Shown piece after piece: positions 17,670 through 62,061 of a DNA stretch of 64,000 nucleotides; position 1 is the first letter of the stretch, and every line of letters begins with the position of its first letter. Both the position numbers and the translations under genes were made by a program. Under the pieces are notes generated by a model. The model saw only the letters and a list, made by a program, of their open reading frames with translations. It was not told the DNA's origin and made no database searches. Source of the DNA: Liolophura sinensis (lineage: Eukaryota; Mollusca; Polyplacophora; Chitonida; Chitonidae); the NCBI RefSeq assembly GCF_032854445.1, contig NC_088302.1:8427338-8491337 (forward strand), written 5' to 3'.

Positions 17670-17751
17670 ATTTGCCGGTAAAAGGTTATGAATGGGTGAA
17701 GATTCGGCACCGGTAATGTAAATTTTTTTCTTCGAGAAAGAAGAAGAAGCC

Positions 17752-25700: not shown

Positions 25701-26022
25701 AATTTATACACTAGCACGGTACACGATTTGAATGCTGATTTCACTTATTCACCTTGAACATACAGATACATAGGCTGCTCCTCTTTTCAAATGATTCCGT
25801 CTTAATTTTATACCTTATACACTTTCTTAGTTTTTTTGGAGGTTTGTATTAATATTTGTGAATTGGCTTTGAGATTATTGACTTGGGACGTTTGTATTGG
25901 AAGACAGCTTGTATAGGAATGTCTTGTTTGATGCATAGATTCTGAACTATGAATCAGTTGGAATATACTTTAAGGCTAACATAGTTGATTTTATCTCACA
26001 TATTCATTATGGTCAATTTCAG

Positions 26023-38635: not shown

Positions 38636-39544
38636 TCCTTGATTATGACTTCTCGCAGAATTTCACGGATTTCTTTATTCATACAGCTGGTCTTTCAGTT
38701 GCAGATCTACATGTACATGTAAACACAGTCAAATTACTTGCCAAAGTGTATTCAGCATGCATTTATGGAAATGAATATATTATTTTTAACAGTTACTTTG
38801 CCTAATTTATGAACAGCCTGTAATTGGACTGCTATACTTAAATGTCTAGAGGTGGGGTGTTCTTACTATATTTATACTTACGCGATAAGAGCTTATTTGC
38901 TCTGTTGGCCTACTCACGATCGCCTACTTAATGTTCATAACCGCTGACTGGTTAATGGGTGGAGGAAAGTGGGTGGACCGTGCACGATATCACTGCAGCT
39001 CACTTAGTACTTGACAAGCAGTCTGAATGCTACCGGATTCGAACACACCTCTCCGTTAGTCACTTGTTCGCGGCCTAAATTGAGGAAGTGCGTTACAATA
39101 ACCAGTACTGAGTGGATCTACATGCATGTACCTACGCATAGTAATTTATCAGCTAAATAGAATAATGCTTATAAAGGATGTGAAATGGTATAAAATATTG
39201 AATTGTTACTCAGTTGTTTAATTGAGACTTAGCGTGTAGGGTACATTAGGTTGACGAGCTTATTGTACAGTTGGCATAAACTTGCCTCGTTGACTGGTTC
39301 ACGATTTTGTGAATTAAATGCATTTAAAACCACTTGTGTGTGTTGAAGCTCAATTTAGGGCTTGGAAGTCGCTAATTATCTCTCTCTGTCTTTTCATCTT
39401 TCATTACGTTTGTATTATTGTAACTTCTTGTAACTTTTCATCATGTAAGAAGATCTCGTATGCTATATCTGCCGTTATCGTTGAACTATATTTTCGTGAT
39501 TCGAATAGAGACTTGAAATAATTCAGATCTTTTGTCTGATTCAG
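38636..39544. other. Upstream region of the two-pass membrane protein gene
   Basis: No coding exon recognised. A splice acceptor (TTTTGTCTGATTCAG, ending at 39544) marks the start of the coding exon, so a 5' non-coding exon and promoter probably lie here or further upstream. Confidence 0.5.
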
Positions 39545-39554
39545 GATAATAAAG

Positions 39555-40757
39555 ATGGATAGATCGAAAATAAAAGTTGACAGAATGATGACAAAGATGG
39601 ACAGGGCAGCAAATGGATCCCCTGAAACGTGGAAACCCTGGACAGAAAACAAAAGCCGAGACCAGTTTGCAAATCGTGAGTGTCCAGAGTTCCCGTCCTT
39701 CGGGTCTGAGTGCTGTAGCCTTGTTGGCATGCTCTGCGTATTGTTCTGCTGTGGACCGTGTCAGAATTCTTTGCCATGGACGTTACGTGTTGTCCCTTTT
39801 TGCGCTTGCGTACTTTTCCTTGCCGTCCTAGTTGTATCTGTGATACAGTATGGTTACTATCGAGATCGGAATTTCCACCTCTCACCGACTGACATTCTTC
39901 GTGTTGTCGACAATCGGTCAGCTGCCTTCTGCAGTGAGTTTGACCTGGACTCTACGAGCCGATTTACGGCATACTTGTTCGACCAACAACCTGTTGTAAA
40001 CCAGGACGTCAAGACTCGCCACATGTGGACAGAAACTGTCTTTGTACAAAATAACAAGCCTGTCGAGAAAAGTCTCTTACTGTTGAAAGGTTCTGTGATG
40101 AAACTGAAAATCTGTCCCGACTACAATCTCAACTTTTGTGCTATCGAAGGCGAGAAGGCGTTTCAGAGCTGGACTAAACACAAGTCACCATCAAACTGTT
40201 TTCAGAGCGGGAAGATCAATCGCGAAAAATGTCGGTCGGTTGAAATGAAATCAAAAAACTCAGGACACATTTACTTCATCTTTACTGCAACAAAATCTGC
40301 AACGTGGGTTGATCTGACCTTTACTCTAAACAGGACCAACTATGACGTCAAGAAAGCTGTAGAATTCTGTGACGTCACACAGCATTGCCAGTTTTCTATA
40401 CCGTTTCACTCGCGGAGCACTGTTGTTGTATCAAGTTTTATAAATGGGGGAGCGGATACTGTCCTAAAAACTCATTGTAGTCCAGGAATCATGTTTTACG
40501 TTTTCATTTTTGTGATTCCAGTGGTTGCCTGTCTTGTTTTAGGTATGGTTTTTGTCTATGTTGTCAGACAAGATGTTAACAGAAAGTTGGATTTAGACAG
40601 AAGATTGAATTCCGTCGCCCGTCGCCCTGCAGATAGTCATCTTAAAGTCAGCCTGCTGAAGTCCAACCTTATCCACTACCACACTTTTCATAAAAATTCA
40701 GAAATACCAAAATGCTTAGCCTCACCGAAAAATTCTAACACATTTGGCAGTTCTTAA
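39555..40757 (+). CDS. Two-pass membrane protein with APD1-4-like ectodomain, 400 aa
   Basis: Complete open frame in one exon, with a strong start context (AAAGATGG) 10 nt after a splice acceptor. Layout: polar N-tail 1-52; Cys cluster C43, C53, C54, C61, C65, C66, C69; TM1 about 78-100; a 210-residue loop 101-310 with sequons N120 and N259 and many Cys; TM2 311-338; Lys/Arg-rich tail 339-400. The loop contains LLLLKGS (174-180), HIYFIFTA (238-245) and LTFTLNRTNYDV (254-265), followed by CDVTQHCQF. From memory this order matches the extracellular part of APD1-4-type proteins (plant RING E3 ligases and many uncharacterised lophotrochozoan proteins). The cytoplasmic tail has only one Cys and no RING, so ligase activity is not expected from this product. 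Family assignment is tentative; function unknown. No close neighbour suggests a role. Confidence 0.85.
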   Translation: MDRSKIKVDRMMTKMDRAANGSPETWKPWTENKSRDQFANRECPEFPSFGSECCSLVGMLCVLFCCGPCQNSLPWTLRVVPFCACVLFLAVLVVSVIQYGYYRDRNFHLSPTDILRVVDNRSAAFCSEFDLDSTSRFTAYLFDQQPVVNQDVKTRHMWTETVFVQNNKPVEKSLLLLKGSVMKLKICPDYNLNFCAIEGEKAFQSWTKHKSPSNCFQSGKINREKCRSVEMKSKNSGHIYFIFTATKSATWVDLTFTLNRTNYDVKKAVEFCDVTQHCQFSIPFHSRSTVVVSSFINGGADTVLKTHCSPGIMFYVFIFVIPVVACLVLGMVFVYVVRQDVNRKLDLDRRLNSVARRPADSHLKVSLLKSNLIHYHTFHKNSEIPKCLASPKNSNTFGSS

Positions 40758-45341: not shown

Positions 45342-45686
45342 ATGCGAGAGTCATTTACTATCCACCCGGCGGACTATGCTGTTTGTGGGGTTACCACGGC
45401 CTTATCTCTAGGGATAGGATTTTACCATGCCTTGGCTAAAGGTGGCCAAAACTCTACCTCCAAATACCTGGTTGGTAACCGTGACATGGGCTTGATCCCG
45501 GTGTCCTTCTCTCTCGTTGTGACATACATGTCCTCTATATTCGTGTTGGGGTCTCCCGCAGAGGCCTACGTTTACGGTGTTCCGAACGTCCTGTCTTTCT
45601 CGCTGGTTATCCTATTTTCTAACGCACTGGCCGCCTGGATAACCGTACCGCTTCTACATCCGCTCAACATCACCAGTGCTTACGAG
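45342..45686 (+). CDS. SLC5-type sodium:solute symporter, first coding exon, copy 1
   Basis: Encodes the first 115 residues of a sodium-coupled solute transporter of the SLC5 family, closest in character to the SMCT/SMVT/NIS branch (SLC5A5/6/8/12). Visible: TM1 about 11-30 (SLGIGFYHALAKGGQ), the SKYLVGNRDM linker, the broken second helix IPVSFSLVVTYMSS then LGSPAEAYVYG, a third helix about 80-104, and ITSAYE at the end. The start is the Met conserved in the other copies; the frame is open 32 codons further upstream, but that part is not conserved. The exon ends GAG|GTAAGG in phase 0, where the next residues in family members are YLELRF-like. No following exon was recognised nearby. It differs from copies 2/3 at many positions, so it is an older paralogue. 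Confidence 0.85.
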
Positions 45687-45699
45687 GTAAGGCAGCATT

Positions 45700-45765
45700 T
45701 CTGTCTTTATTTATTTATTTTATTGTTATTTTACGCCGTAACCAAAAACATAGATGGCTGGTAAA
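45700..45765 (-). repeat. SINE family A tail fragment
   Basis: TTTATTTATTTTATTGTTAT followed by TTTTACGCCGTAACCAAAAA, i.e. the SINE-A 3' end on the minus strand, starting 14 nt after the donor of SLC5 exon copy 1. Short, so moderate support. Confidence 0.6.
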
Positions 45766-46263
45766 TTACATTAGATGTTTGGCTTCCACAGTAGCTCTGT
45801 GACACAGAGATTCCGGGCTCGACTCCGGCTAGGGTCAGATGCCTTATCTCTATCCCTGTTTTGATGAACATCTATACATTTGTCAGATGGTCTGTTTACA
45901 TGTAGTAATCATCTCGCAACGGGATACGGAAATAACATCCATCCGGCTAGAAAAGTAAAATTAACCGGCTACTTACGACGTCATATAACGAGAAGCTGTT
46001 ATAAAAACAAAAACAAAGAAGTAGTATATAGTCGTAGGCTTACACAGATACAGCAATTAATTCATCTGCAAAGTCACCTAAAGGAAGTCATCATCTCTCT
46101 GACGGCCAATCAAACCAACTGTGTTACATTAATGTTGGCCGATGGACTGGAATAACCATCACAAAGCACTTCCTCATGTGTAAACATGACAGTTCCTTAC
46201 CCGGGACTGAGAATTTTCAAGATGATTACAGATCTGGGCCATGGAATATTTGTTAAGATCACG
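45766..46263. other. Intergenic or intronic, no exon seen
   Basis: A tRNA B-box-like GGCTCGACTCC near 45815 may be the remains of another SINE. No SLC5 exon recognised. Confidence 0.4.
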
Positions 46264-46475
46264 GTCAGTATGTTTTATTTTTTTTTTTATTTGATTGGTG
46301 TTTTACGCCGTACTAAAGAATATTTCCCTTATACAACGGCGACCAGCATTATGATGGGAGGAAACCGGACAGAAACATCCGCAGGTTGCTGCAGACCTTC
46401 CCATGTACATCCGGAGAGGAAGCCAGCATGAGCTGGACAATCAACTGAGCCGTTGAGGTCCTCCAGTCAGTATGT
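46264..46475 (-). mobile_element. SINE family A, 5'-truncated, with target-site duplication
   Basis: The minus-strand copy 46274-46465 runs from GCTCAGTTGATTGTCCAGCT through the body to AACACCAATC and an A-rich end. It is flanked by perfect 10-bp repeats GTCAGTATGT at 46264-46273 and 46466-46475. Most of the tRNA head is lost or altered. Confidence 0.88.
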
Positions 46476-47189
46476 CACCCCTGCTTTCAAAACCATCCTA
46501 AATACATTTTCTCGCCGTTCATAAGCAACGAAATTGTTTCACGTGCTGGTTAAACCACGTTGTGCATACTTTAGGTAAAGAGAATATATGTGTGTACAGT
46601 CACATTGGAAAGAAAGGTTGAAACGAAGTTCTTGCCTTTTCTGACATCACTTCCTGTTTCATCACTGTGGCCCCATTGACTGCGTTCAATATTACTCGAT
46701 ATTTCTGTACAAAGTTTGCTAGCGGTGGTAGCGATGCAAACCGAGCGTAGAGGGCGTCACATGCGCTGGAGGACGCTCGAGAGACCACTTTACGGTCTGC
46801 CCCACCCGAGATTGATAAAATCGTTAAACAATGATACTAATATAAATTTAATAAATTTAAAACCAGTAATTCATCGAATGTATTACAAGGTTTGGAAACA
46901 TTTTACCACTTAGCACTGGAACGAAGGAGCAATGTAAGTAGACTATAAAACAGCTAATATATGTGTGTTATGTCTACATTGCCAGTGATATACTTTGTAT
47001 CAGGTTTGCCAGCAATCTACATGTACATCTCTAATGCGTATACAACGTGTATCACCGTTTATTTCCAATTGTTCGCTTTGCCTGATAGTCTGCCACATCC
47101 TTTACGTCCAGTCGTTTAGCATTCATGTGCCTCTTATAAGTTACTATGGGCCATTTGTTTAACCAAAGGTCTGCCCAACCAGTCATGTT
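46476..47189. other. Gene-free stretch
   Basis: No exon or repeat recognised. Confidence 0.4.
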
Positions 47190-47335
47190 TACTTGCTCTA
47201 TCCTCACAGTGCTTGGCGTCAAGCGAGGCAGCAACAAGTACCAATCTTAATCAATCAATAAATTATTAAAGTCTGGGGTATGGCCCGGGTTTGATCCCGG
47301 GTCTCCCGATTCGAGGCAGGCTTCATAGAAAGATC
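47190..47335 (-). repeat. SINE family C with tRNA-like T-arm
   Basis: On the minus strand a B box in a perfect T-arm-like stem (GACCCGGGATCAAACCCGGG) is followed by GCCATACC, then GTACTTGTTGCTGCCTCGC and a CAAGCACTGTGAGG block. Related to 55945-56140 (+) and 14165-14245 (-). Confidence 0.7.
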
Positions 47336-48736
47336 GTAGATTACTTCGTGAATATTAGAATTGTGACATATAAAAAGTACAACCATTTTGATCACACGAT
47401 GGATGTGCCAGAAGAATAATGTATTGCTCATTATATACTTATATCGGAAAAAACACCTGCACATATAGGCCTTACTTTAAATATGAATACCCATGCCTCA
47501 CTGACAAGTGCAAATTTAAAGACCCTTTGTTAAATATAAGGTAGTTTACTGAATTAAGTCATACATGTATGTCTGCTTGGGGTTTTACGTCGTATTTAAC
47601 CCTGTCTCAGTCATATGACAGCTGCGCGTATAGTCCACAGACATGCCTTATCTCTGAATTATGATAATAAATTATACATAGTAATACGATTGAAGTACTG
47701 GTTTAAAACGGGACGAAATCCAAGTCCAAATATATTTGTTGGACATGAGCCACATCTGCATTTAGGGCTTAATTACGCAGAGACGATATGTACCAAGAGC
47801 TGGTCCCTAATATCACCATACCAAGAAAAAAAAAGAAAACTCAAAGAAAAAAGGAAGATATATTGATGATCATATGTGCAAATAACTTTCCATGTGTCCA
47901 TCTGAAGATTTCTTCACGTTTATTTTTTGCCCACCGTTAACAATGTATGCTGGCCTTAAATTAGCATCGAAGTATCCCGCTGTATGATACATTGCCTGTC
48001 CTGAAAGGTAACTTTCAGGATATAAAATGTCAAATTGCTGCACGGGTACGTTTTCTCGGTATTATCAGCCCTGCATGAATCAACGGGGGAACAAATGACA
48101 TTTTTATCCCTTTAAATTGTTGTAATGTTATTGTATGTTAAATGTGATGACAACACAGAATTTTGAAAATTCTAGACCGTGACGTCTTGTAAATTTTAAT
48201 TAACAGCACTGCATTTTTTGTCTCTACTTCTGCGTAAGGCATGGTACTAGGAGGCGTGTAATTTGCTACTATTTATGCATCTACATGAACAGTCAGAATA
48301 ATCCCAAAACTGAGAGATTATTGACAAGAGGACGTATTTTCACCGGTTACGTGTGACCATTTGCCAGCTATCACACGGTCGTCGATGCTGCTATCTTACT
48401 CTCTGTGCTCTGCGTCTACAATGACATTCGTGTTAAATGCAGTTGCGTCATAGGCTGTGGAATGTGTAACCAAACAATGACTTATTTAAATGTCTTTTAA
48501 AACACAAACTCTTGAGTCATAGTGTCTTTGGGGTCGACCTGTTCATCATGTAGTCACATCGACATCTACTAAAAGCCTTATTATCAAATTTCACTTTGTG
48601 TAACGTGAACTTTTTAACATTTTGTTAATTGCTATTTGGGTAAATAAACTTTTCACTGTATGTATGTAACATGGACACACACGATCACGCAGCACTCGAG
48701 TGGGTAGGCCTATATGTCAAGCGACAGCTGTCAACC
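47336..48736. other. Gene-free stretch
   Basis: No SLC5 exon, other gene or clear repeat recognised, although this is the interval where exons following copy 1 could lie if it were a complete separate gene. Exons shorter than about 60 codons could have been missed. Confidence 0.4.
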
Positions 48737-49031
48737 ACACAAAACTGTATGTGATCAGTGGTTTGCTTGCGCCTGCGCGTGTTCCAAAAACCTGCAGACA
48801 ATAGTCAGAGCTCACGGTGTCACCTCCCCTACCTGTAGACAATAGCCAGGGCTCACGGTATCACATCCCTTGTGTGCATTACAGCACGTTTTGGTATAAT
48901 TTACTTGTTTGTACCTGCTAGATATGCATAGTCACAGTTTTGATGAACACAGGTAGATATTAATTTTCTCATTGCTCACAAGTAGGATAAAAACTTCTCC
49001 AGGGTAAGAGACTCTCCATTGCGCCAGCAGA

Positions 49032-49379
49032 ATGGAGAGAAATACATTTACAATTCACGCGGCAGACTATGCTATTGCAGGAGCTACAACGGCTGTCTCC
49101 CTGGGGATTGGAATTTATCACGCAATGGCCAAAGGTGGCCAAAAATCAACGGCCAAATACCTGGTGGGCGACCGGAACATGAGCGTGATTCCAGTGTCGT
49201 TCTCACTGGTCGTTACGTACATGTCGTCTATTTTCCTTCTTGGAAATCCGGCCGAAGCGTACGTATACGGGATTCCCAACGTTTTGGCCTTTTCCTTGGT
49301 CATTTTCTTCTCCAACGCCCTGGCAGCTTGGTTGACTGTGCCACTCTTGCATCCGCTTCACATTACCAGCTCTTATGAG
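49032..49379 (+). CDS. SLC5-type sodium:solute symporter, first coding exon, copy 2
   Basis: 116 codons, one residue longer than copy 1. Starts MERNTFTIHAADYAIAG and ends at the same TYE-equivalent (SSYE), with donor GAG|GTAATT in phase 0. Conserved features: YHAMAKGGQ, KYLVGDRNM, the second helix with VTYMSS, LGNPAEAYVYG, and FFSNALAAW in the third helix. A TATA-like GATAAAAA sits about 50 bp upstream of the ATG, in sequence shared with copy 3. A pyrimidine-rich acceptor-like TTTTCTTTCTTTACACAG ends at 49404, only 25 nt past the donor and also present in copy 3; that is too close to be this exon's own acceptor. Twelve nucleotide differences from copy 3, eight synonymous, indicate past or present coding constraint. 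Confidence 0.87.
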
Positions 49380-49944
49380 GTAATTATTTTCTTTCTTTAC
49401 ACAGGTTTAGTGTCCTTACTATACTGAAAAGCACTTATATGCGGACGACATGAAGTATTCAAAAATTGTTCCGTCTCGAATAAACGCTACGATACATATA
49501 CACCGTAAAATCATTATAGAGTTTCCTAAAGCCTTTCTAAGTTTATCAAGCACGACCGTCATATGTTTGTACTAAGTCCGAATTGACTACAAGTTTTCTA
49601 TGGTAAAGATGCTATAACCATGGTATCGATTTTCTTATTGTCACCACTATATCATATTCTGTCTATATGTGAGCATTCTACTCATATTTATCACCGAATG
49701 ACTCCCCGTTGTCATTTGACTCAAACAATGTCCCACGTAAAAAAACCCCAAGCATACATCCATCCATACATCTCTGCCATAAATATAAACCAACATCAAA
49801 ACTGAAAATTTGTTTCAAACATAGTTAAAAACGTACAGCATAGAGATTGAAATCAGAATAGCAACCACAGTGTGATAGTTTGCAAATGATCACACGCATA
49901 CATGCAAATGGAGAAATAAGGCCTTCTTGTCAGTTACTTCAGGT

Positions 49945-50217
49945 ACCACTGGGGTGACCTAATGAATAGAGCGTTCGCCTCGAAGTACCGGCCCCGCTTG
50001 GTGGAGCGCCCATTTCGGGGGCGGTAGAACCAGGGTCAATCCTGGGTCGGTCACACCGAACACCTTCAAAAGAGAAAGGCGTAACTTTCTCGCTTGGCAT
50101 TCAGCATTAAGGGGATAGTCCTTCGACTGGTTGACCAGTAAAAATTTTATGGCTCAGACAGGGGCGGCTTACTTAACCTCGTTAAGCTGTCTCGGTGAAG
50201 CAGCTCTAGATAAAATA
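49945..50217 (+). repeat. SINE family B, copy 1
   Basis: tRNA-like head (GACCTAATGAATAGAGCGTT), a B-box region CCAGGGTCAATCCTGGGTCG in a T-arm-like stem, then AAGGGGATAGTCCTTCGACT / GGTTGACCAG, GGGGCGGCTTACTTAACCTC, GTCTCGGTGAAGCAGC and a short A-rich end. It is shared with unit B, so it was inserted before the segmental duplication. Confidence 0.8.
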
Positions 50218-50234
50218 CATTTAATTATCATCAA

Positions 50235-50620
50235 CTATTTTACTAGTATGGTACAAGATTTGGATAATTGACCATTTTTTGGATTTTTCCACCAGAAAAC
50301 TACTGAAAGCTTGTCTTTACACGCTACCGTCCCAATTTCGTACTTTATATAATTTCGTCTTTGATGGATTCTGTTAAACGTTTTTGACAATTGACCTTGC
50401 GATAATTGGCCCGGAACATCCAATTGAGTTCATGGCTGGTATACGAATGTCTGTTTTGCATACGAATGTCGGTTTTGACGTAGAGATTCACATCTACTGT
50501 TATTACTTGCTGGTTTTCATGGAAAGATTTCTACATTAGGTAAACACTTAAATATCATTAGACGTGAACCGACCGAAATTATCTTACGGACAAGGCGATA
50601 ATGTACGCACTATTGAAAAA
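50235..50620 (+). repeat. Dispersed block, copies at 57.66 and 61.26 kb
   Basis: A block from GGTACAAGATTTGGATAAT to GATAATGTACGCACTATTG. It is shared with 57660-58045 and, more diverged, 61265-61620. In the third copy it lies upstream of the SLC5 exon rather than downstream, so the duplication is mosaic. Confidence 0.85.
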
Positions 50621-51080
50621 TTACAGTGTTGCACCTTTCCAACGTTTTAGAGTGGAGCATCTTATTTACTGGGGCACATCCCACTCTCGGGATGGCCTGT
50701 AAATCCTGAGTTGGTAAAACCTATATACCCGACGATAAACCATATTCAATTCACATTGTTCATTTTTAATAACCAATCGATCGTGACTTAACATAAATTA
50801 CACACGGGAAGAGTGTCAACTGAAACTGGGTCAACAACAAGGGATTTCCAGTATGCTGATCGAATAAATCTTCAAACTAAATCAAATACTTAAACCTTTC
50901 AAGGGCCTCAAATTAATTGTATGTCGATACTTGTCGAACAATCTGAGCCAGAATACAATTTTCGTCATTAACACTCTACAGTCTAAATGTTGATAAGAGT
51001 GATAGACTAAGCGCATTTTCTCAAAATATTCAAGACCATGAAGTTGCCGTTGTCAGAATCTATTCTAGAAGTCTTATACA

Positions 51081-51415
51081 AAATTCGAGTGTTTCATCAT
51101 GCTCGAGTGTTTCATCAAGCTCGAGTGTTTCATCAAGCTCGAGTGTTTTCTCAAGCTGGAGTATTTTATCAAGCTCGGGTACTAGTATTTTATCAAGGTC
51201 GAGTGTTTCATCAAGCTCGAGTGTTTCATCACACTGGAGTATTTTTGCAGGGTTGTTTTATTAAAGTCGAGTGTTTTTGCAAGCTTGTTTTTTATGCTCG
51301 AGTGTTTTATCAAGCTCGAGTTGTGTTTATCAAGCTCAAGTGTTTTTTCAAGCTCAAGTGTTTTTCCAAGCTAGAATGTTTCATCAAACTCGAGTGTTTC
51401 ATCAAGCAAGTTTAA
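51081..51415 (+). repeat. 18-bp minisatellite with CTCGAG core
   Basis: About 18 imperfect units of AAGCTCGAGTGTTTCATC. The related array is at 62236-62480. A 125-codon open frame across it (VFHQAR-type repeats) is a by-product of the 18-nt period. Confidence 0.92.
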
Positions 51416-51958
51416 ATCCCGATATACCCTTATCAAGACGCAGATAATTTAAAATGTACTATTTACATGCCCCAAGTACTATTTCATGCATATAGCGGCG
51501 TACCCAGGAAATGTAGAATGATTTCAGTTCTTTGTGGTGATTGCCTATATATATCTAGGTCACGTAAACAAACTGAGATTTGACCTTATACTACAAGTTT
51601 TAGAACTCTCGGTAGAAGAAACAGAATTTCATTAACTCAGCCAAATGCATTCAGACAGATAACAGTTACACGGCTGTGTAGCTCAAAATACCTCTATGTT
51701 TCTTCGCGAAAGTCGCAAACACCGCCTTGCCGCAAATCTGGTCCACGCGCCCCGGAGCAGAAGTTGAAAGCCATTAGTGACGAATGCTCGATAAATGAAC
51801 AGTGTGAATATAAATGAGAAAGTTTTTCATCCATTTTTTGTTGTAAGGAAAGCTTAAACAACGATCATAAAAATACATCAAGAAATTTAACAGACATTGA
51901 TATGAAATATAACTAGAACTGCATGCAGTTATACGGCTTCCAAGAGGTCTGTACTCAC

Positions 51959-52056
51959 AGCTCTTAGCGTCCATTCTCTACAACTTTCCACTTTCCCCAC
52001 CACAGGTCGTTCAAATCTATTAGTACTGTGCTCTTCTGAAAACATCCCAGGTTTGT
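51959..52056 (-). other. Candidate 98-nt minus-strand exon, copy A
   Basis: On the minus strand a pyrimidine-rich acceptor (TCTATTTTTTGCTCGTATTAG) precedes, and a consensus donor GTGAGT follows, an open 98-nt segment reading KPGMFSEEHSTNRFERPV and onward to WTLRA. The segment has the same length without indels in copy B (59502-59599). No known family recognised. It may be chance; no partner exons found. Confidence 0.2.
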
Positions 52057-52125
52057 CTAATACGAGCAAAAAATAGACATAATTCATATCAGACAGTAAA
52101 CATTCCGCACGAGTAAAGTGAATGT

Positions 52126-53850
52126 AATTTGACGTCCTGATCATGAATCTGGTCGTATTTTTCCCTTCAAGATCTATTTATGTCGCACATTGCCATGACA
52201 AATGGGCAATTTGCAATTTTCCACCATATCTGTAGGTCACGTAACAGAAAACTAATAAAGCTGTAATTCAAAATTGCTGAGTAGAAGGGACTATATATGT
52301 AGTGTCTGCATGCTGAAAATCTGTAAGCTGTCTTAATAAATACAGAATATACAGGGCTTCAAATTTGACAAAAGGCCGATTTACTATATTTTGGCACATT
52401 TACAAAAGTATGTTATATAATGCATATACACTCTTTTCGTAACTAGGATGAATGTAGAAATATTGCAAATATGCCACTCGATGTAGTTTGACGTCCTGAT
52501 CACAAATCCGGTCTTATTTTTTCCTGCGGTGCATATTTTTGTCGCAAATTGTGATCAACACTCGTAAAAGCGCAATTTCCTCCATTTTTTTCAAATCACG
52601 TGACAGAAAACTGTTACAGCTTTAAACCTGAAAATCGCAGTATACAAAGGGCTGTACATGTACTGTACTTATGGTGAAAATTGTTGCGTCAATAAACAAT
52701 ACTTGCACGCTTTTGAATAATGTCCAAAGGCAGATTTACCACATTTGGCACATTTACTTATAAATGTTGAATAGTGTAATGCAATGTATGGATGGCTACC
52801 AAGAATATGTATCATGTATATGTTCTCTTGATTATCTGGTTTGCACTACAGTTGCGATTGGGTTACCCAGTGCCTTTGCAACCCAATGCTGTGTGTGTAT
52901 TTCTGAAAGCCAGCTTTGTGTTGCGCAAACCTTGTCTTCTTTACTACACGCTAACCAGGCCCCGGTGATTGACAGATATCTACATATGCCCTGGTCCAGG
53001 TGTTCGTTTTCTGACAACGGCCGAGCTATTAGTAATGCACTCAGTCTGTGGATCGCAGGTCGTGGATTTATACATGGAAGTATAGACTTGCTGTTACAAG
53101 GGCCATGCTTTTTGCGTTATTTCTTACAAATAGGCATCATAAGTCTGAGAAGGGATCGCAGTTTCTCATTAGACAGAGCACAGCAGCATCATCAAGCTCG
53201 CCGATCTATTCGCGGGAATGCGAATGACCGGCCAACTGCCTCTGTGACAGTTGTCGCATTGACAATTTCGAAGCCTTGTATCTGGTTATGTGTTTATTTT
53301 CGACCAATAACTTATGCTCTCATATGAAAGATATGAGTATCTCATATAAGTGTGCAGAAAATGTGTATGGAAATTTGAAATGAAAATGGCGACTACCTCG
53401 TGGACTTAGTTACATATATAATAGAGTGGATGGTAGAGGAGATGTTGTCGAAATTTTCCCTGACTAGACCTAATTACATAAGGACTTAAACCCTAACCTC
53501 CTCCCAGCTGTATGGTATGACGCTGATTTGTCTTGGGCAGTTGAACGTCGAAAATTATTGACGTCGGGAAATTGACATTAGGCAGATCGCGAGGTATAGT
53601 TTTGCCGCAAATTGCGAAAAAAGCGCAATTTCCTCCATATTTAGCGGCCACGTCATAGAAAATTGTTACAGCTGTAAAGCTGAAAATCACTGAGTGCAAA
53701 GCGCTATACATGTACCCTGTGTATGCTGAAAATAGTTGAGCTGCGTGTGGTTAAAAAAGAGAGGACGTGCACGCCTTCAAATACTGCCCAGAGGTCGATT
53801 TACTCCGGTTGACACATCTACATACATATGATATACAGTGTACTTACAAT
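52126..53850 (+). repeat. Three diverged copies of a roughly 300-350-bp repeat
   Basis: Copies at about 52126-52480, 52486-52770 and 53520-53850 share, in order, a GACGTC(C/G)-type start, GTCGCAAATTG, CGCAATTTCCTCCAT, CACGTGACAGAAAACTGTTA / CAGCT, a TACATGTAC block and GATTTAC..ACACAT. A fourth copy in unit B (60375-60540 and 60766-60830) is split by a SINE-B. Probably an unidentified non-autonomous element. Confidence 0.7.
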
Positions 53851-54898
53851 GCTACGAAGAATGTAGGCTTTCTGATTAAAATAGCTATGAAAATATACAT
53901 GCCTTCCCTTAAGGTAACTCGAAGTGACATCACATAGACCGGCATCCCGCTTGAACCCCGGCATCGCTGCTTTAGTGGCTATATTTTTGATGTTTTTTGG
54001 TCATATCCTAAAAACTATACCAAGTACAAACATAACTTATACAGATTTGTAATCCAGGCGTCAAGCAGTATTGGCAGTGTGTTTATTTAATCATTTTAAG
54101 CAGTTTTTAGACTTGACCTACTTTTAAGCTAATTTCATTGGTTTGTTACACCACAACTTGCGTACTAAACAAAATGTTTTTGTACAATATAAGTACGGCG
54201 ATCCACCTAATACTTGCAAACGAAATTTCATCCAAAGGTCATCAGCCCATTCACAAAAGAGATGGTTTAAGCTTATCAATAAAATTTAAAATGGCTGCTA
54301 AATCACTTGACTGGCCAATCAGCACTAAACGTCAAAAGCTGCATCATATTTTGCCTATTAAAAATGCCAAGTTTGTTTTTCTACCTTTACCAGTTTTGAA
54401 GATATTTTCTCTCAAAACGGAAAAAAAAGTTGTCAGAGGAGAAGGAAAATATTCTGAGCAAGAACAATAGTTTTCCTAATAGCCTTATAATGTTAATGCA
54501 CACCAGACCCACAAGTATGAAGGTTGACTTGCGTCACTGTGCACGTCTGTATATCTCAATAGGTTTCAATTTAGTTGAGTGTCTGTGGTTCAACGTGGCT
54601 TTGAAATTTGAACTTCTGCAAACATACGATAAAATGTAGATCATATCAATGTATGGCGAGTATTCAATAGTTTTGTTGAAAAAAAAAACATGTAAAGACA
54701 CTTGATTCCCTAGGCAAGAAAGCACGTAAGCGCATAGTTCCCTAGGCAAGAAAGCAACATAAGTCTTAAGTAGTACTTTATGACATACGTTTAAGTAAAA
54801 TATGGAAACGAGCGTATTTGTAGTACATGTCGGTCATGCAAGTTATGTAACGCTGTCAGATGTCCTTTAGTTTTCTAGGTCAGCTTTGTTTACATAAT
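53851..54898. other. Gene-free stretch
   Basis: Not part of the A/B duplication. A 110-codon open frame at 54138-54470 has no recognised family features and no splice or start support. Confidence 0.45.
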
Positions 54899-55710
54899 CT
54901 ACGTATACTTTGTTTGATGTTTGATCACAGGCACGTTCTGACCACTTGCTTTTAACGGGATGAGGATCTTCCCACCTACCATTGTCTGGTTAACAACGTT
55001 AGGACAATGCCATATAGAACTAGAATGCCATCTGAAAGGACCAACATTTGAAACAGTCAAATGTACAAATACCGCCTCACACACAAATGGGCAAACAGCA
55101 TTTTTGTCAATTGTGAAAAATCGCTAGAATGATGATCATCAAAATTAAATGTATTTTTCCTTAGTAAACATGTGAACAAAAATTCATTTAAAGCCTTGCG
55201 TTAAATTTCTTTCATGTTGCTGAAAGGCAATATCTTCCTTGGCGGAAGAAGTTAACCTGGATCAGTTAAACTTCTTGGAACAATCATTTGAATAAATGAA
55301 CTGTTTGTACCCATATTGCAAACTAAGCATTAGGTGTTTGTTTTAACTGTTCCTGTAAATGTTTAAGTCTAAACTGTACCAAATTAAACGCCCTAATCAC
55401 CATGCCTTGAGTAGAATTAAATAAAATACAGTGCTGTTACTTGCAATTTATTAGACGTCAATGATGTAGAATTTAAAGAATTTTAATTGTTTAGACATGT
55501 TTTAAACTTTTAAAATATTGTGAGCGAAAGTTATAACTGTCCGGAGACGAAGTTTCCAGCAGTTTTCAGTGAAGCCGATCCTGATTATAGTTTATGAATT
55601 AAAAGAAATTACATGTACTATCTATTCAATTTTTTTTAAATTTAGCAGATTATATTGAAACTTTGCGATATGCACCTATATGTACAGCTAGTGACACAGG
55701 TGAATTTGAC
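54899..55710 (+). repeat. Duplicated block, copy at 62523-63290
   Basis: Shares many ordered segments with 62523-63290: TACCATTGTCTGGT, AAACAGTCAAATGTACAAAT, AAAGCCTTGCGTTAAATTTC, TTTAAACTTTTAAAATA and GTGGAGCCGATCCTGATTA-like. It places the sequence after unit A parallel to the sequence after SLC5 exon copy 4. Confidence 0.85.
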
Positions 55711-55944
55711 GCTTACTTACAATGGTGACTGTGAGATTCCACAATCATTATGTCGAATATTTTTCGCCTTTCCAAAAGCCTATCTAAAGAGTGTATAGAA
55801 TCTCTTTCACAAACATATACCAACCTGAAAACTAAAAATTTACATCAAATATAATTAAATAAATATAAATTTATATTAAAATAGATTAAAGACATAAAAA
55901 AAATGTTAAGTACCACGGTAAACCCTGAGCACTCACTCACTCAC
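55711..55944. other. AT-rich spacer
   Basis: No recognised feature. Confidence 0.4.
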
Positions 55945-56140
55945 ACAGCACCGAATTCGAGAGACATGGGATCAAACCTGGGCTGTGTCATACCAAAGAT
56001 TTTAAAATTGTTGCTTGTTGCTGCCTCCCACTGCGCTCAGCACCTAGGTTAGAGCGAAGGACTGGCTGGCCCGGTGTTTCTATATTGTGATTGTGTGGGG
56101 TATCGTGTCTAGTGTCTTACACACACCTAATGGCTCCTCA
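55945..56140 (+). repeat. SINE family C
   Basis: B-box-like GGGATCAAACCTGGG in a T-arm-like context, followed by TCATACCAAAGATTTTAAAA, TTGTTGCTGCCTCCCACTGC, GCTCAGCACCTAGG and GGCCCGGTGTTTCTATATTG. Opposite in orientation to the 47.2-kb copy. Confidence 0.65.
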
Positions 56141-56584
56141 TCGTCCTATGACTAAACATTGTTAAGTACATGTACGGTGCCCAACCCCACTATTCATTCA
56201 TTCATTGTCTTGTATATTCCGTATGTCCTGTAAGTAGTGGAGACACAACCTGCAAACCTTATTACATCTGCATTCAGGCAGTAGTGGGTTTTTGTGTCTT
56301 GCTTTTAATATCAATTTTCCTACTGCAGACATCGACACAAAACTGTAAGTGATCGTTTGTTTGCTTGGGCCTGCGCATGTTGCCAAAACCTGCAGACAAT
56401 AGTCAGGGCTCACGGTGTCACATCCCTTATGTGCATTATGGCACATTGATATAATTTACTTGTTTGCACCTGCTAGATATGCATAGTCAGTTTTTATGAA
56501 CACAGGTAGATATTAATTTTCTCATTGCTCACAAGTAGGATAAATACTTCTCCAGGGTAAGAGACTCTCCATTGCGCCACCAGA

Positions 56585-56932
56585 ATGGAGAGACATACAT
56601 TTACAATTCACGCGGCGGACTATGCTATTGCAGGAGCTACAACGGCTGTCTCCCTGGGGATTGGAATTTACCACGCAATGGCCAAAGGTGGCCAAAAATC
56701 AACGGCCAAGTATCTGGTGGGTGACCGGAACATGAGCGTGATTCCAGTGTCGATCTCTCTGGTCGTTACGTACATGTCGTCTATTTTCCTTCTTGGAAAT
56801 CCGGCCGAAGCGTACGTATACGGGATTCCCAACGTCTTGGCCCTTTCCTTGGTCATTTTCTTCTCCATCGCCCTGGCGGCTTGGTTGACTGTGCCACTCT
56901 TGCATCCGCTTCACATTACCAGCTCTTATGAG
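56585..56932 (+). CDS. SLC5-type sodium:solute symporter, first coding exon, copy 3
   Basis: 116 codons, 336/348 nt identical to copy 2. Same ATG, same phase-0 donor GAG|GTAATT, same upstream sequence with a TATA-like GATAAATA about 45 bp before the ATG. Four amino-acid changes from copy 2: N4H; the Phe of PVSFSL becomes Ile; AFSL becomes ALSL; SNAL in the third helix becomes SIAL. Asn at that last place is kept in copies 1 and 2, so a helix-lining polar residue is lost here. The four replacements against eight silent changes leave copy 3 looking functional. No downstream SLC5 exon recognised before copy 4. Confidence 0.87.
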
Positions 56933-57380
56933 GTAATTATTTTCTTTCTTTACACAGGTTTAGTGTCCTTGATACACTGAAACGCACTTATATGCGGACA
57001 ACATGAAGCATACAAAAACTATTCCTTCTCGAAGAAACACTACGGTGCATATACACCGTAAAATCATTATATAGAATTTCCCCCCCTTTCCTAAAGCCTT
57101 TCTAAGTTTATCAAGCCGTCATATGTTTTTTCTAAATCCGAAATTGTCATTTGACTCAAACAATGTTCCAAAAAAAAAAAACCTAAGCATACATCCATCC
57201 ATACATCTCTGCCATAAATATAAACCAACATCAAAACTGAAAATTTGTTTCAAACATAATTAAAGACGTACAAGGACAGAGATTGAAATCAGAATAGCAA
57301 CCATAGTATGATAGTTTGCAAATGATCACACGCATACATGCAAATGGAGAAATAAGGCCTTCTTGTCAGTTACTTCAGGT

Positions 57381-57630
57381 ACCACTTGGGTGACCTAATC
57401 AATAGCGCGTTCGCCTCGAAGTACCGGCCCCGCTTGGTGGAGCGCCCATTTTGGGGGCGGTAGAACCAGGGTCAATCCTGGGTCGGTCACACCGAACACC
57501 TTCAAAAGCTTGGTTTTCAGCATTAAGGGGATAGTCCAACGACTGGTTGACCAGATACAATATAATGTCTCAGACAGGGGCGGCTTACTTCACTTCGGTA
57601 AGTTGTCTCGGTGAAGCTGCTTTGGATAAA
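57381..57630 (+). repeat. SINE family B, copy 2
   Basis: Orthologous to the 49945 copy by duplication, with a roughly 20-bp deletion after ACCTTCAAAAG. B-box region CCAGGGTCAATCCTGGGTCG retained. Confidence 0.8.
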
Positions 57631-57659
57631 AAAAATATTTTAATTATCATCAACTATTT

Positions 57660-58045
57660 TACTAGTATGGTACAAGATTTGAATAATATTTTCATTCATT
57701 CGCCTTGACCATTCCTTAGGTTTTTCCACCAGAAAACTACTGAAAGCTTGTCTTGGCACGTTACCGTCCTAATTTTGTACTCTATATAACTTCTTCTTTG
57801 ATGGTTTGTGTTAAACGTTTTTGACAACTGACCTTGCGATAATCGGCCCGGAACATCCAATTGAGTTCATGGCTGGTATACGAATGTCTGTTTTGCATAC
57901 GAATGTCGGTTTTGACGTAGAGATTCACATCTACTGTTATTACTTGCTGATTTTCATGGAAAGTTTTCTACATTAGGTAAACACTTAAAAGTCATTACAC
58001 GTGAACCGACCGAAATTATCTTACGGACAAGGCGATAATGTACGC
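57660..58045 (+). repeat. Dispersed block, second copy
   Basis: Equivalent of 50235-50620 in unit B, with one small extra segment (TTTCATTCATTCGCCTTGAC) that is also present in the 61.26-kb copy. Confidence 0.8.
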
Positions 58046-58330
58046 ACTATTGAAAAATTACACGCTTGCACGTTTCCCACGTTTTAGAGTTGAACATCTT
58101 ATTTACTGGGGCACATCCCACTCTCGGGATGGCCTGTAAATCCTGAGTTGGTAAAACCTTTAAACCCGACGATAAACCATAATCAGATTACATTGTTTAT
58201 TTTTAATAACCGATCGTTCATGCCTTAACATAAATTACACACGGGAAGAGTGTCAACTGAAACTGGGTCAACAACAAGGGATTTTCAGTGTGCAGATCGG
58301 ATAAATCTATAAACTAAATCAAACATCAGG

Positions 58331-58366
58331 ATATATATATATATATATATATAAATATATATATTC
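58331..58366. repeat. (AT)n microsatellite
   Basis: About 18 AT units with one interruption. It marks the point where unit B departs from unit A. Confidence 0.9.
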
Positions 58367-59090
58367 ATTCTTCGGCGGATTTTTTTCCTTCAGAGTTAAT
58401 TTCTTCGAGAACATCGTACTAAAATCATTCAGTTGATTACACACCATCATGTTTGTGGCAGTGTCGTGCATGATGTGAATTTGTAGGAAAATAACGCACG
58501 GAATATGAATACTAGAAGACTGATGTTTAACGCTATAGTGAAAAACTATTCACTCGTACGGAGTTCAGATAAATCGGAGAGCCCTGCGTAACCCACTGTT
58601 ATTGAACTTTTCCACATGTGAAACGCTGTGCACACCGTATTGATGAAAAAGAAGTGGTACGATAGCAGAAGTGGGATGAATTTACAAATTTGAAAGATCT
58701 TATGATTGATATAAGCCCTAAATTGTTTGGTTCTTAAATGATATAGGAAAATAGGTAAAAAATGTTGAAACAAATTCGTTTCAATTGAATTTTGAAGGTT
58801 TTGTGACCGGAAATTATTACCCTATGAATCTGAAAATGGGGGACAGTCCACAACTATAAGAGGTCTTCCATTCCCCTAAAGTTGCACATCTCTAGTTGTC
58901 AGTGCCGAATATATGGCGGTTAAAAGTAGCAAAATGAAAATTATACCACTTATCCTTACATCATCCGTGGTTCTCGATTTCCGCTGGCTGATCAGGCGGG
59001 TTAAAAATTGGCATAAACTTGTTAGAGCTGCAGGCCATGACCACAAGGGACATGTGATATTTAAATCCTGCACAACGGCGGCTCAGGGTT
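58367..59090. other. Unit-B-specific DNA
   Basis: Not present in unit A; no gene or known repeat recognised. Confidence 0.45.
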
Positions 59091-59228
59091 AAAATTTCAC
59101 ATCCACGGTTTAAATCCCGATATACCCTGACCAAGACGCAGATAACTGAAAATATACTATTTACATGCCCCAAGTAATGTTTCATGCATATAGTGGCGTA
59201 AATGCAGACAGGCAACAGTTACACGGCT
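59091..59228 (+). repeat. Left arm of an inverted repeat
   Basis: Pairs with 59674-59835 read on the opposite strand across a 445-bp spacer. Shared blocks include GTTTAAATCCCGATATACCC, CAAGACGCAGATAACTGAAA, TTACATGCCCCAAGTAATGT and CAGTTACACGGCT. Confidence 0.92.
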
Positions 59229-59501
59229 GTGTATCTCAAAATATCTCCATGCTTATTCGCGAAAGTTAAAAACAAATCTGGTCCACGCGCCCCGAGGCAG
59301 AAGTTGAAAGCCATTAGTGACGAATGCTTGACAAATGAATAGCTGTATGGGTATAAATAAGAAAGTTTTTCATCCATTTTTTGTCGTGAGGAAAGCTTAA
59401 ACAACGGTCATAAAAATGCATCAAGAAATATGACAGACATTAATATGAAATATAACTAGAACTGTATGCAGTTGTACCGCTTCCAAGCGGCCTGTACTCA
59501 C

Positions 59502-59599
59502 AGCTCTTAGCGTCCATTCTCTACAACTTTCCACTTTCCCCAGCACATGCCGTTCAAATCTATTAGTACTGTGCTCTTCTGAAAACATCCCAGGTTTGT
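59502..59599 (-). other. Candidate 98-nt minus-strand exon, copy B
   Basis: Same length and frame as 51959-52056, donor GTGAGT intact, with changes altering at least two residues (RPVVG to RHVLG). The acceptor's pyrimidine tract has been replaced by inverted DNA, so this copy is probably unusable even if copy A is real. Confidence 0.15.
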
Positions 59600-59673
59600 C
59601 TAATACGTGGGGCCTGGTTAGCGTGTAGTAAAGAAGACAAGGTTTGCGCAACACAAAGATGGCTTTCAGAGAA

Positions 59674-59835
59674 AGCCGTGTAACTGTTTGCCTGTCTGCA
59701 TTTACGCCACTATATGCATGAAACATTACTTGGGGCATGTAAATAGTATATTTTCAGTTATCTGCGTCTTGATCAGGGTATATCGGGATCAGGATATATT
59801 TTATATCGGGATTTAAACCGTGGATATGAAATTTT
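59674..59835 (-). repeat. Right arm of an inverted repeat
   Basis: Inverse complement of 59091-59228, with a roughly 25-bp internal duplication around ATCGGGATCAGGATATA. The adjacent 59608-59671 is the inverse of 52901-52964 in unit A, so this arm belongs to a local inversion. Confidence 0.9.
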
Positions 59836-60540
59836 GACAGATATCTACATATGCCCTGGTCCAGGGTTTCGTTTTCTGACAACGGCCGAGCTATTAGTAA
59901 TGCACTCAGCCTGTGGATCGCAGGTCATGGATTTATACATGGTAGTATAGACTTGCTGTTGCTTTTTGCGTTTTTTTTTACAAACAGGCATCATAAGTCT
60001 GAGAAGGGATCGCAGTTTCTCATTAGACAGAGCACAGCAGCATCATCAAGCTCGCCGAATTATTCCCGGGAATGCGAATGACCGGCCAACTGCCTCTGTG
60101 ACAGCTGTCGCATTGACAGTTTCGAAGCCTTGTATCTGGTTATGTATTTATTTTCGACCAATAACTTATGCTCTCATATGAAAGATATGTGTGCAGAAAA
60201 TGTGTATGGAAAATTGAAGTGAAAATAGCGACTACCTCGTGGACTTAGTTACATATATAATAGAGAGGATGGTAGAGGAGATGTTGTCGAAATTTCCCCT
60301 GACTAGACCTAATTACATAAGGACTTAAACGCTAAGCGTCTCCCGGCTGTGTGGTATGACGCAGATGTGTTTCAGGCAGTTGAATGGCGAAAATTATTGA
60401 CGTCGGGAAATTGACAAAAGGCAGATCGCGACGTATAGTTTTGCCGCAAATTGCGAAAAAGCGCAATTTCCACCATGCTTACAGACACAGTCACAGAAAA
60501 CTGTTGCAGTTGCGAAGCTGAATATCACTGACTGCAAACA

Positions 60541-60765
60541 CCGGCCCGGATAGCACAGTTGGTAGAGCGTTCGCTTCGCGACCGGTAGATCCAGGATCAA
60601 TCCTTGATCGAATCACAACTAAGACTTGAAAAGGCGTTCAGCGTGAAGGGGATAGTGCAACGACTGGTTGATCTGTATCAGTATAATGGCTCGGGCGGGG
60701 CTGCTTACTTGCCTTCGGTAAGTCGTCTCAGTGAAGCAGCACTAAATAAAAGAGCGGTGTAAATC
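60541..60765 (+). mobile_element. SINE family B, copy 3, unit-B-specific insertion
   Basis: Head GGCCCGGATAGCACAGTTGG (A box TAGCACAGTTGG), TAGAGCGTTCGCTTCGCGAC, B-box-like GATCAATCCTTGATC, then AAGGGGATAGTGCAACGACT / GGTTGAT, GGGCGGGGCTGCTTACTT, GTCTCAGTGAAGCAGC and an AAATAAAA end. It interrupts a repeat that is continuous in unit A (near 53700). Target-site duplication is not clear. Confidence 0.85.
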
Positions 60766-61154
60766 CGTCCTGCAACTGAAAATAGTTGAGCTACGTTTGG
60801 TTAAAAAAGAGAGGATTATATCCCACAGAAAAAGTTTTCTGCAAACTTAAAACACAAGTTCTTTGTGCTGAGAGATGGCGAAGGGAGAAACTGATGTTAT
60901 TTTTTTGATCTTGTGGATTCAGTTTTGACCAAAGGTTCCTGCATATGGCATGTAAATATTTAGCCTTGTTTGGATTCGATCCTATGTGTTGCGTGACGAT
61001 TTGAGTCAACGCCAGAAATTATTACTGCAAAACATGGTGTGTCAAGGTTATTCCATCCACCTTCATTCTAAGATTTACAATGAGTATTATTCTCTTGTAA
61101 GTAAATGCGGACAAATCCGGAATCTCTTTTACTCAGCTTTGTGAATGTGTCTAA

Positions 61155-61250
61155 TTCCACTCAGGGGTTTTGTATTCATCGTGTTGACTTTGAACGCCAC
61201 GTTGGATATATGAACAATAGCAATCAAAGCGCAACTGAGATACGCATATA
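61155..61250 (+). repeat. Dispersed repeat, related to 25.6 kb
   Basis: Diverged relative of 25590-25700; see that entry for shared blocks. Confidence 0.4.
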
Positions 61251-61264
61251 AATTATGATCTAGC

Positions 61265-61620
61265 ATGGTACAAGATTTGGATAATGGTTTCATTCATTCG
61301 CCTTGAACATTCTTTGAAAACTACTGAAAGCTTGTCTTTGAATGCTTCTGTCCTAATTTCGTATTATATATAACTTCATCGCTCTGTGGTGTTTTGTGTT
61401 AAAGGTCATTTTGACAATTGGCCTTGCGATAATTGACCCGGAACATCCAATTGGGTTGACGACTGGTATACGAATGTCTGTTTAGACGTAGAGATTCACA
61501 TCCACACTTATTCCTTGATGATGTTCAGGGAATATTTTCTATATTAAGGAAAACTTGAATATCATTAGACGTCAACCGACCGAAATTATCTTACGGATAA
61601 GCGATAATGTACGCACAAAT
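61265..61620 (+). repeat. Dispersed block, third copy
   Basis: Diverged copy of 50235-50620 with internal deletions (one GTTTTGCATACGAATGTC unit lost). It ends about 100 bp upstream of SLC5 exon copy 4. Confidence 0.8.
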
Positions 61621-61726
61621 AAAAAAATATTATATTTACCGGTTGTTCAAAATCTGCCAAGGTGTGGTACACTATACCAAAGGGGAAAAGCTGAGAACCT
61701 CTGAAGAGTTTTCGGGAGTCAGTAGA

Positions 61727-62061
61727 ATGAAGAAAACGTTCACAATCCAGCCGGCCGATCAGGTCATTTGTGGGGTAACCACGACCATTTCCCTGGGGAT
61801 AGGGATGTACCACACCGTGGCCAAAGGTCCACAACCAAATATCTGGTTGGTAACCGAAGCATGAGTATTCTACCAGTGAGTTTTTCTTTGCTGGCCACAT
61901 GCATGTCCTCCGTCTTTGCGCTGGGGCAGTCCGCAGAAGCTTCTGTCTACGGGGTTCCAAAAGTCCTTGGATTCTCTTTGGTTATCGTGTTGTCGTGCCC
62001 TCTAATGGCTTGGATCACCTTACCGCTACTCCACCCACTTAACATCACCAGTTCCTATGCG
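61727..62061 (+). pseudogene. SLC5 first coding exon, copy 4, frameshifted
   Basis: 335 nt, exactly 10 fewer than copy 1. Starts MKKTFTIQPADQVICGVTT and keeps SLGIGMYHTVAKG, then a 10-nt deletion just after the AAAGGT codons shifts the frame and gives a stop at 61862-61864. The other frame resumes with STTKYLVGNRSMSILPVSFS and runs to LLHPLNITSSYA. The donor GCG|GTAAAC is intact and at the family position. Glu before the donor is changed to Ala, and conserved SN and AY residues are altered. More diverged than copies 2/3. It could be a true pseudogene exon, an assembly error, or start at the downstream ATG (61861), which would lose the first helix. Confidence 0.8.

What the first reader, a model, noticed from the sequence alone, without database searches (positions are those of the whole stretch)
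45342..62061. Four tandem copies of only the first coding exon of an SLC5 transporter: a possible alternative-first-exon cluster
Exons at 45342, 49032, 56585 and 61727, all on +, begin at a homologous ATG, end at the homologous codon and have a phase-0 GT donor. I recognise no second exon (YLELRF-like start) in the 3.3, 7.2, 4.8 and 1.9 kb that follow them. This is the architecture of clusters in which variable first exons are spliced to one constant set, as in UGT1A. It would give one transporter body with exchangeable N-termini, including helix 1 and the broken sodium-site helix, each under its own promoter. The plainer alternative is tandem duplication of an exon-1 segment, or of whole genes with short exons I missed.
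Basis: partly seen in the sequence, partly recalled or inferred. Interest (0 to 1): 0.85.

Follow-up and report, generated by a model that had tools for sequence, protein, structure and literature searches.

The report
Six first exons, one transporter gene
In a chiton genome, six tandem copies of the first exon of a sodium-coupled transporter gene stand in front of a single copy of the rest of the gene, so one transporter may be made with a choice of beginnings, as in known vertebrate gene clusters; no RNA evidence was available to prove it.

Summary
The genome's contig lengths equal those of a published Liolophura chiton assembly. Four SLC5 first exons (E1) are present, but the fourth is frameshifted by a 10-base deletion. 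Two more intact E1s follow outside the window, then one downstream exon set (body A; 14 exons found, canonical splice sites, 3' end not modelled). No credible body exon was found between the copies. A decayed second body without E1 follows. Elsewhere this family pairs one E1 with one body (25 of 25 paired bodies); here it is 6:1. The five intact E1s share a phase-0 donor and show purifying selection, also in a pair duplicated without a body (8 of 12 differences synonymous). Best reading: a variable-first-exon cluster like UGT1 or protocadherins. Against: no transcripts; body A as assembled has four single-base indels in three exons, without excess amino-acid change; no shared upstream motif. 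The presumed sodium-site stretch is well conserved among copies, so its exchange is not what they offer.

The parts
45342..45686 (+). E1-1: intact SLC5 first coding exon (115 codons), donor GAG|gtaagg, phase 0
49032..49379 (+). E1-2: intact first coding exon (116 codons), donor GAG|gtaatt, phase 0
56585..56932 (+). E1-3: intact first coding exon (116 codons), recent tandem copy of E1-2 with flanks (86-92% over blocks from 48.7-53.7 kb against 56.3-60.5 kb)
61727..62061 (+). E1-4: broken first exon (335 nt, 10-base deletion, frameshift, last codon GCG). Parts beyond the window end (E1-5, E1-6, body A, body B) are listed with continuing coordinates in the full report

Best explanation
This is a variable-first-exon cluster of an SLC5 (SMCT/NIS/SMVT-type) transporter gene. 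Shown: six tandem E1 copies (five intact), one downstream exon set (body A), compatible phases, and purifying selection on the E1s. Inferred: each intact E1 has its own transcription start, and its phase-0 donor is spliced over the downstream E1s (which as first exons would lack an acceptor) to the single exon 2 of body A. The result would be one transporter with five alternative N-termini covering the first two or so helices. Because the presumed sodium-site stretch is well conserved and change is densest just after it and in the N-terminal segment, I think the choice serves mainly where and when the gene is switched on, with modest tuning of the protein. E1-4 and body B are dead by-products of birth and death in the array.
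For: Six E1 in a row and no credible body exon among them. One body with 14 exons bounded by AG and GT, E2 at phase 0. Of 26 bodies with an upstream E1 in this genome, 25 have one E1 and this one has six. Array E1s lie behind one branch of support 100/99, with one flagged long row among them. Between the older E1s synonymous change is near or beyond saturation while dN is 0.12-0.33. The E1-1/E1-2 DNA alignment ends 4 nt past the donor. E1-2/E1-3 were duplicated without a body and still show 8 synonymous of 12 differences (null mean 3.5, P 0.009), and 12 substitutions with no indel in 348 nt against 155 of 2245 aligned sites in four flanking blocks (Fisher P 0.013). The broken E1-4 changed 10 of 61 otherwise agreed residues; E1-1, -2, -3 and -6 changed 1-5 of 62-66. 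In six exon pieces bodies A and B differ at 68 of 591 sites (11.5%), in four noncoding blocks at 20-27%, with 36 synonymous of 68 against 18.7 expected.
Against: No transcript was available. Body A as assembled has three single-base insertions and one deletion in three successive exons, so standard splicing would not give a full transporter. Its exon 2 has lost the glutamate of YLE-RF and is only 43% identical to the C2 paralogue; E10 is only 41%. E1-5, the most divergent copy, changed 14 of 75 agreed residues. No word is shared by the 300-nt upstream regions of four E1s, though this test has little power (control median 0); UGT1 variable exons do have a conserved upstream motif (PMC1885805, passages). 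The acceptor scan neither finds nor excludes an upstream leader exon. The post-duplication selection test rests on 12 differences.
Confidence: 0.58

Rival explanations
1. Relic array: the cluster once worked but body A has recently died, and the intact E1s are leftovers that have not yet decayed.
For: Four frame lesions in body A; a broken E1-4 and a dead body B show that the locus does decay; weak-looking E9 acceptor taaaaaatag; a 4-kb tandem repeat in the window is indel-free, so assembly errors are not obviously common here.
Against: The lesioned exons E8-E9b (77 codons compared) show no excess amino-acid change (identity to the C2 paralogue 0.65, pN 0.246) against E2-E7 (204 codons; 0.63, 0.235), so the lesions are very recent or assembly errors in a 14x HiFi assembly (PMC11068029, passages). 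The other modelled body-A exons and five E1s have no frame-breaking indel.
Confidence: 0.24
2. Only E1-6 is joined to the body; the upstream E1s are exon-1 segmental duplicates that are silent, or are read on their own as short proteins running into the intron.
For: E1-6 lies 1.4 kb from E2, near the E1-E2 spacing of the paralogue C2a (about 0.8 kb). Stop-to-stop frames around the intact E1s are 139-178 aa.
Against: Silent copies should not show synonymous excess after a body-less duplication. The E1-1/E1-2 similarity ends just past the donor, so what is kept is an exon with its splice site, not a read-through protein.
Confidence: 0.12
3. Mutually exclusive internal exons: a shared leader exon upstream is spliced to one of the E1s, which then joins exon 2.
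For: Two of six copies have an upstream AG scoring near real acceptors and above the random 90% point of 8.4 (E1-2 9.3, E1-6 9.6; median of the 24 training acceptors 9.7).
Against: Those two lie 128-147 nt upstream; over all six copies scores range 3.0-9.6 around a random median of 5.0, and there is no common position.
Confidence: 0.06

Closest known systems
Vertebrate UGT1 cluster (UGT1A)
   Same: Tandem similar variable first exons of almost identical length and the same frame, pseudogenes or relics among them, one set of constant exons (PMC1885805, passages seen).
   Different: Enzyme, not transporter; the variable exon there encodes a substrate-recognition domain; conserved upstream motif there, none found here; mRNAs known there, none seen here.
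Clustered protocadherins (Pcdh alpha and gamma) and GCNT2
   Same: Variable first exons spliced to a common constant set (PMC1885805, passages).
   Different: Unrelated proteins; transcripts known there; three constant exons in Pcdh alpha and gamma, two in GCNT2, at least 14 here.
SLC5 SMCT/NIS/SMVT transporters
   Same: E1-1 protein matches SMCT1 (7sl9), NIS and SMVT chains at 2.1e-15 to 8.5e-15; body exons lie in the same order as in two paralogues of this genome.
   Different: In this genome the other bodies that have an E1 have just one.
Oyster AOX with duplicated exon 10
   Same: Alternative use of a duplicated exon in a mollusc; its authors call it the first such case in a mollusc (PMC5589949, abstract).
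   Different: Two copies of a last exon, shown by mRNA; here six copies of a first exon, no mRNA seen.

Membership tests
Variable-first-exon cluster (UGT1/PCDH kind) | several similar first coding exons in tandem, same frame and end | tested here: met
   five intact and one broken E1
Variable-first-exon cluster (UGT1/PCDH kind) | no constant exons between the variable exons; one constant set downstream | tested here: met
   (none credible between); body A. A second, decayed body lies further downstream
Variable-first-exon cluster (UGT1/PCDH kind) | constant set encodes a working protein | tested here: inconclusive
   four single-base indels in three exons as assembled, no excess amino-acid change there
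Variable-first-exon cluster (UGT1/PCDH kind) | transcripts join each variable exon to the same constant exon | not testable with these tools
   no RNA data held
Variable-first-exon cluster (UGT1/PCDH kind) | own promoter before each variable exon | not testable with these tools
   no expression data; see next row for sequence motifs
UGT1 cluster in the narrow sense | conserved sequence motif upstream of each variable exon | tested here: not met
   no 9- or 10-mer (1 mismatch) or 12-mer (2 mismatches) shared by four 300-nt upstream regions; control median 0, so low power
SLC5 / sodium:solute symporter family (PF00474) | profile match over the curated cut-off | tested here: met
   E1-1 30.5 and E1-2 29.7 bits, cut-off 22.8; the five intact E1s over the cut-off in the genome search, 27.3-32.9 bits
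SLC5 / sodium:solute symporter family (PF00474) | full transporter encoded | tested here: inconclusive
   14 body exons found in order, frame broken in three; 3' end not modelled

The most novel reading that the evidence does not exclude
A working UGT1A-like cluster in a membrane transporter of a mollusc: five promoters and five interchangeable N-terminal helix segments feeding one SLC5 body, which would extend this gene architecture to the core of a LeuT-fold carrier.
Probability: 0.5. Interest if true: 0.72.

Novelty: new member of a known kind. Interest (0 to 1): 0.56.

Why it matters
Clusters of variable first exons are described in numbers in the human genome (PMC1885805, abstract and passages); the ones I read about here are vertebrate enzymes and adhesion proteins. 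A case in a chiton transporter would suggest that the design arose again elsewhere, in a protein whose first helices belong to the transport core, and it can be tested at once with published RNA reads. It would also be a warning to annotators (my inference): gene predictors may call upstream E1s noise or separate truncated genes.

Tried and rejected
Rejected: full genes with short missed exons between copies. Allelic false duplication of E1-2/E1-3: they differ by about 7% in flanks, while heterozygosity is 1.24% (PMC11068029, passages). Family-wide habit of several first exons per body: 25 of 26 bodies with an E1 have just one. Haplotig copy of the lesioned exons: the DNA search found only the locus itself and body B. 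Shared upstream motif: none found, low power.

Led nowhere: comparison with the two distant paralogues alone (mostly repeats); (noise). The displays were cut, and rows of repeat-like peptides were filtered out by a word list. The exon-2 motif scan missed the locus's own exon 2. One minus-strand hit of the E7 peptide at window 17000-16956 (E 0.001) was read and set aside as chance: 15 residues, no neighbouring exon seen; not pursued further.

Rows merged or dropped before counting: the 35 rows became 34 loci (E1-4 gave two rows). The 50 rows (E up to 1; roughly the lower half of the list is above 0.001) became 29 bodies by proximity. Three E1 loci had no body hit within 60 kb: C1:95044026 (though one search lists an SSF stretch 7 kb further on), C13:1196150, and the 10-kb contig C609. 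Three bodies had no E1: C13:1139951, C2:21920362 and body B. Four further E1 loci were read and left out of the tree: L036 has a stop and a gap, L037 is split over two frames, L035 matches only to about residue 77-85, L038 is diverged. So damage in this family is not confined to the array. E1-4 was left out of the tree and of the dN/dS table. In the tree one distant row (R5, branch 2.63) falls among the array rows; the program flags such rows as unsure.

Literature: searches (3 of 3 listed; 10 of 99; 1 of 1; 8 of 427; 12 of 11,712; 12 of 51) listed no paper that by its title or abstract start describes a variable-first-exon cluster in an SLC5 gene or in a chiton. Mostly listings were seen, so this is not proof of absence.
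Full report
WHAT WAS CHECKED. The window is C8:8427338-8491337, + strand, of a genome of 609,464,459 bases in 632 contigs. Contig C1 is 96,433,062 and C9 37,343,639 bases long. These equal the longest scaffold and the N50 of the chiton assembly published as Liolophura japonica, with 632 scaffolds (PMC11068029, passages), later corrected to L. sinensis (PMC12441733, whole text). The identity is thus inferred from lengths, not given.

PARTS BEYOND THE WINDOW END (continuing coordinate = C8 position minus 8427337; all +). E1-5 65992-66336 and E1-6 71140-71484, intact first exons. Body A: E2 72903-72971, E2b 73458-73509, E3 73796-73863, E4 74572-74652, E5a 76319-76392, E5 76546-76683, E6 78033-78168, E7 78833-78921, E8 79973-80086, E9a 81910-81981, E9b 83332-83418, E9 85109-85320, E10 86230-86330, E11 88572-88699. 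Body B 99965-111239, a decayed tandem copy of body A, 72-86% over blocks.

FIRST EXONS. The four reported exons are real. The translations of copies 1 and 2 match the SSF family (the five intact copies also in the genome search), and copy 1 matches solved SMCT1, NIS and SMVT chains. Copies 1-3 are intact with donor GAG|gt at phase 0. Copy 4 is 335 nt long with a 10-base deletion, reads into stops and ends GCG|gt. Two further intact copies lie at 65992 and 71140. A genome-wide protein search gave 35 rows, 34 loci, six of them here.

NO BODY BETWEEN THEM. blastn of all 14 body-A exons against the 134 kb found, besides body B, only short chance matches. tblastn of 13 of 14 body-A exon peptides over 1-72.8 kb, both strands, gave nothing better than E 0.08 on the + strand. 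tblastn of paralogue exons over 45-104 kb, + strand rows only, gave its first body hit at 72915. The best hit was a 15-residue minus-strand match at 17.0 kb, set aside after reading it. The motif scan found no exon 2 either, but it also missed the real one.

ONE BODY AFTER THEM. From 72903 to 88699 lie 14 exons, each bounded by AG and GT, in the same order as in two paralogues. Further 3' exons must exist and were not modelled. Exon 2 starts YLLLRY where the paralogues have YLEKRF and YLELRF. By their lengths the phases agree from E1 through E7 and from E9 to E11. In E8, E9a and E9b single-base indels (three insertions, one deletion) break the frame. A second copy of the body, 99965-111239, has no E1 or E2 that I could find, lacks several other exons, and has a frame break and stops; it is dead. 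There are no N in the 134 kb read.

IS 6:1 UNUSUAL? Pairing the 34 E1 loci with 29 body loci: 31 E1s have a body within 60 kb downstream on the same strand. Of 26 bodies so paired, 25 have one E1 and this one has six. The body hits include weak ones (E up to 1), and the tool warns that counts are lower bounds. Array E1s lie behind one branch of support 100/99, and in all of 200 bootstrap trees they are one group against the other named group; one very long row falls among them. So the copies most likely arose here by duplication of E1 segments. E1-2 and E1-3 share 86-92% over blocks of a unit of roughly 7.5 kb in which no body exon was found.

ARE THE COPIES USED? Among the older copies synonymous change is near or beyond saturation, while dN is 0.12 to 0.33. 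That alone could date from a time when each had its own body. The recent pair answers part of this objection. It was duplicated without a body, and of its 12 differences 8 are synonymous (null mean 3.5, P 0.009), with no indel in 348 nt, while four flanking blocks differ at 155 of 2245 aligned sites and have indels (P 0.013). These P values are modest and rest on 12 changes. The broken copy E1-4 shows what lack of constraint looks like (10 of 61 agreed residues changed, with an uncertain alignment next to its deletion), although the divergent copy E1-5 also has 14 of 75.

IS THE BODY ALIVE? In six exon pieces shared by A and B, 68 of 591 sites differ; in four noncoding blocks 20-27% do. Of the 68, 36 are synonymous against 18.7 expected. 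So at least one of the two was under selection for much of the time since they split. The four indels sit within three successive exons, and those exons (77 codons compared) show no excess amino-acid change against E2-E7 (204 codons). A long-dead stretch with four indels should show many changes. Hence either very recent loss or local assembly error. The assembly used hifiasm on 14x HiFi reads; in the passages I read, the word polish occurs only for library preparation. On the other side, a 4-kb tandem repeat in the window is indel-free, so errors are not obviously common here. I cannot decide between the two.

WHAT VARIES. Among the five intact E1s 25 of 39 columns are invariant in residues 39-77, which hold the presumed broken sodium-site helix (placement recalled from the family, with the SMCT1 alignment), 6 of 23 in residues 78-100, 12 of 16 in 101-116 and 17 of 38 in 1-38 (the borders are mine). 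So the copies differ most just after the sodium-site stretch and in the N-terminal segment.

PROMOTERS. No 9-, 10- or 12-mer is shared by four 300-nt upstream regions, a test of low power. The acceptor scan before the ATGs shows nothing consistent. Separate promoters are therefore an inference.

MECHANISM. Most likely each intact E1 is a first exon with its own start, spliced past later E1s to exon 2, as described for UGT1 and PCDH (PMC1885805, passages). Shown: anatomy, phases, constraint. Inferred: starts, splicing, protein. Membership in the variable-first-exon kind is met on anatomy, open on transcripts and on an intact constant part; a UGT1-type upstream motif was not found.

VERDICT. The layout is secure at the level of this assembly. 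A functional cluster is somewhat more likely than not (0.58). A recently dead cluster is the main rival (0.24).

Noticed in passing
window 9769-13816: 64.3 copies of a 63-bp unit, 95% match and 0% indels; because 63 is a multiple of 3 several frames on both strands stay open for up to 1370 aa. Probably a satellite, not a gene.
   Followed up: no
window 17722-18270 and 25939-26733, +: Two exons of a rhodopsin-type GPCR (PF00001, E 1.4e-19 and 6.3e-22).
   Followed up: partly
window 39540-40757, +: 405-aa open frame with an APD1-4 middle domain (PF16041, E 9.6e-13).
   Followed up: no
continuing coordinates 71673-72410 (L001 7673-8410): Short-period tandem repeat in the intron between E1-6 and exon 2 (self-comparison).
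   Followed up: no
C2:8798950-8799390 (L036) and C8:57219550-57219990 (L037): First exons of other family members with damage (a stop and a gap in L036; match split over two frames in L037), so decay or assembly error touches this family elsewhere too.
   Followed up: partly
C2:21920362-21921493: A body of the same family with no E1 hit within 60 kb upstream.
   Followed up: no
continuing coordinates 81895-82014 against 106444-106562: E9a of body A and of the dead body B are 95.8% identical in DNA while the blocks around them are 72-86%, which may mean gene conversion between them or local constraint.
   Followed up: partly
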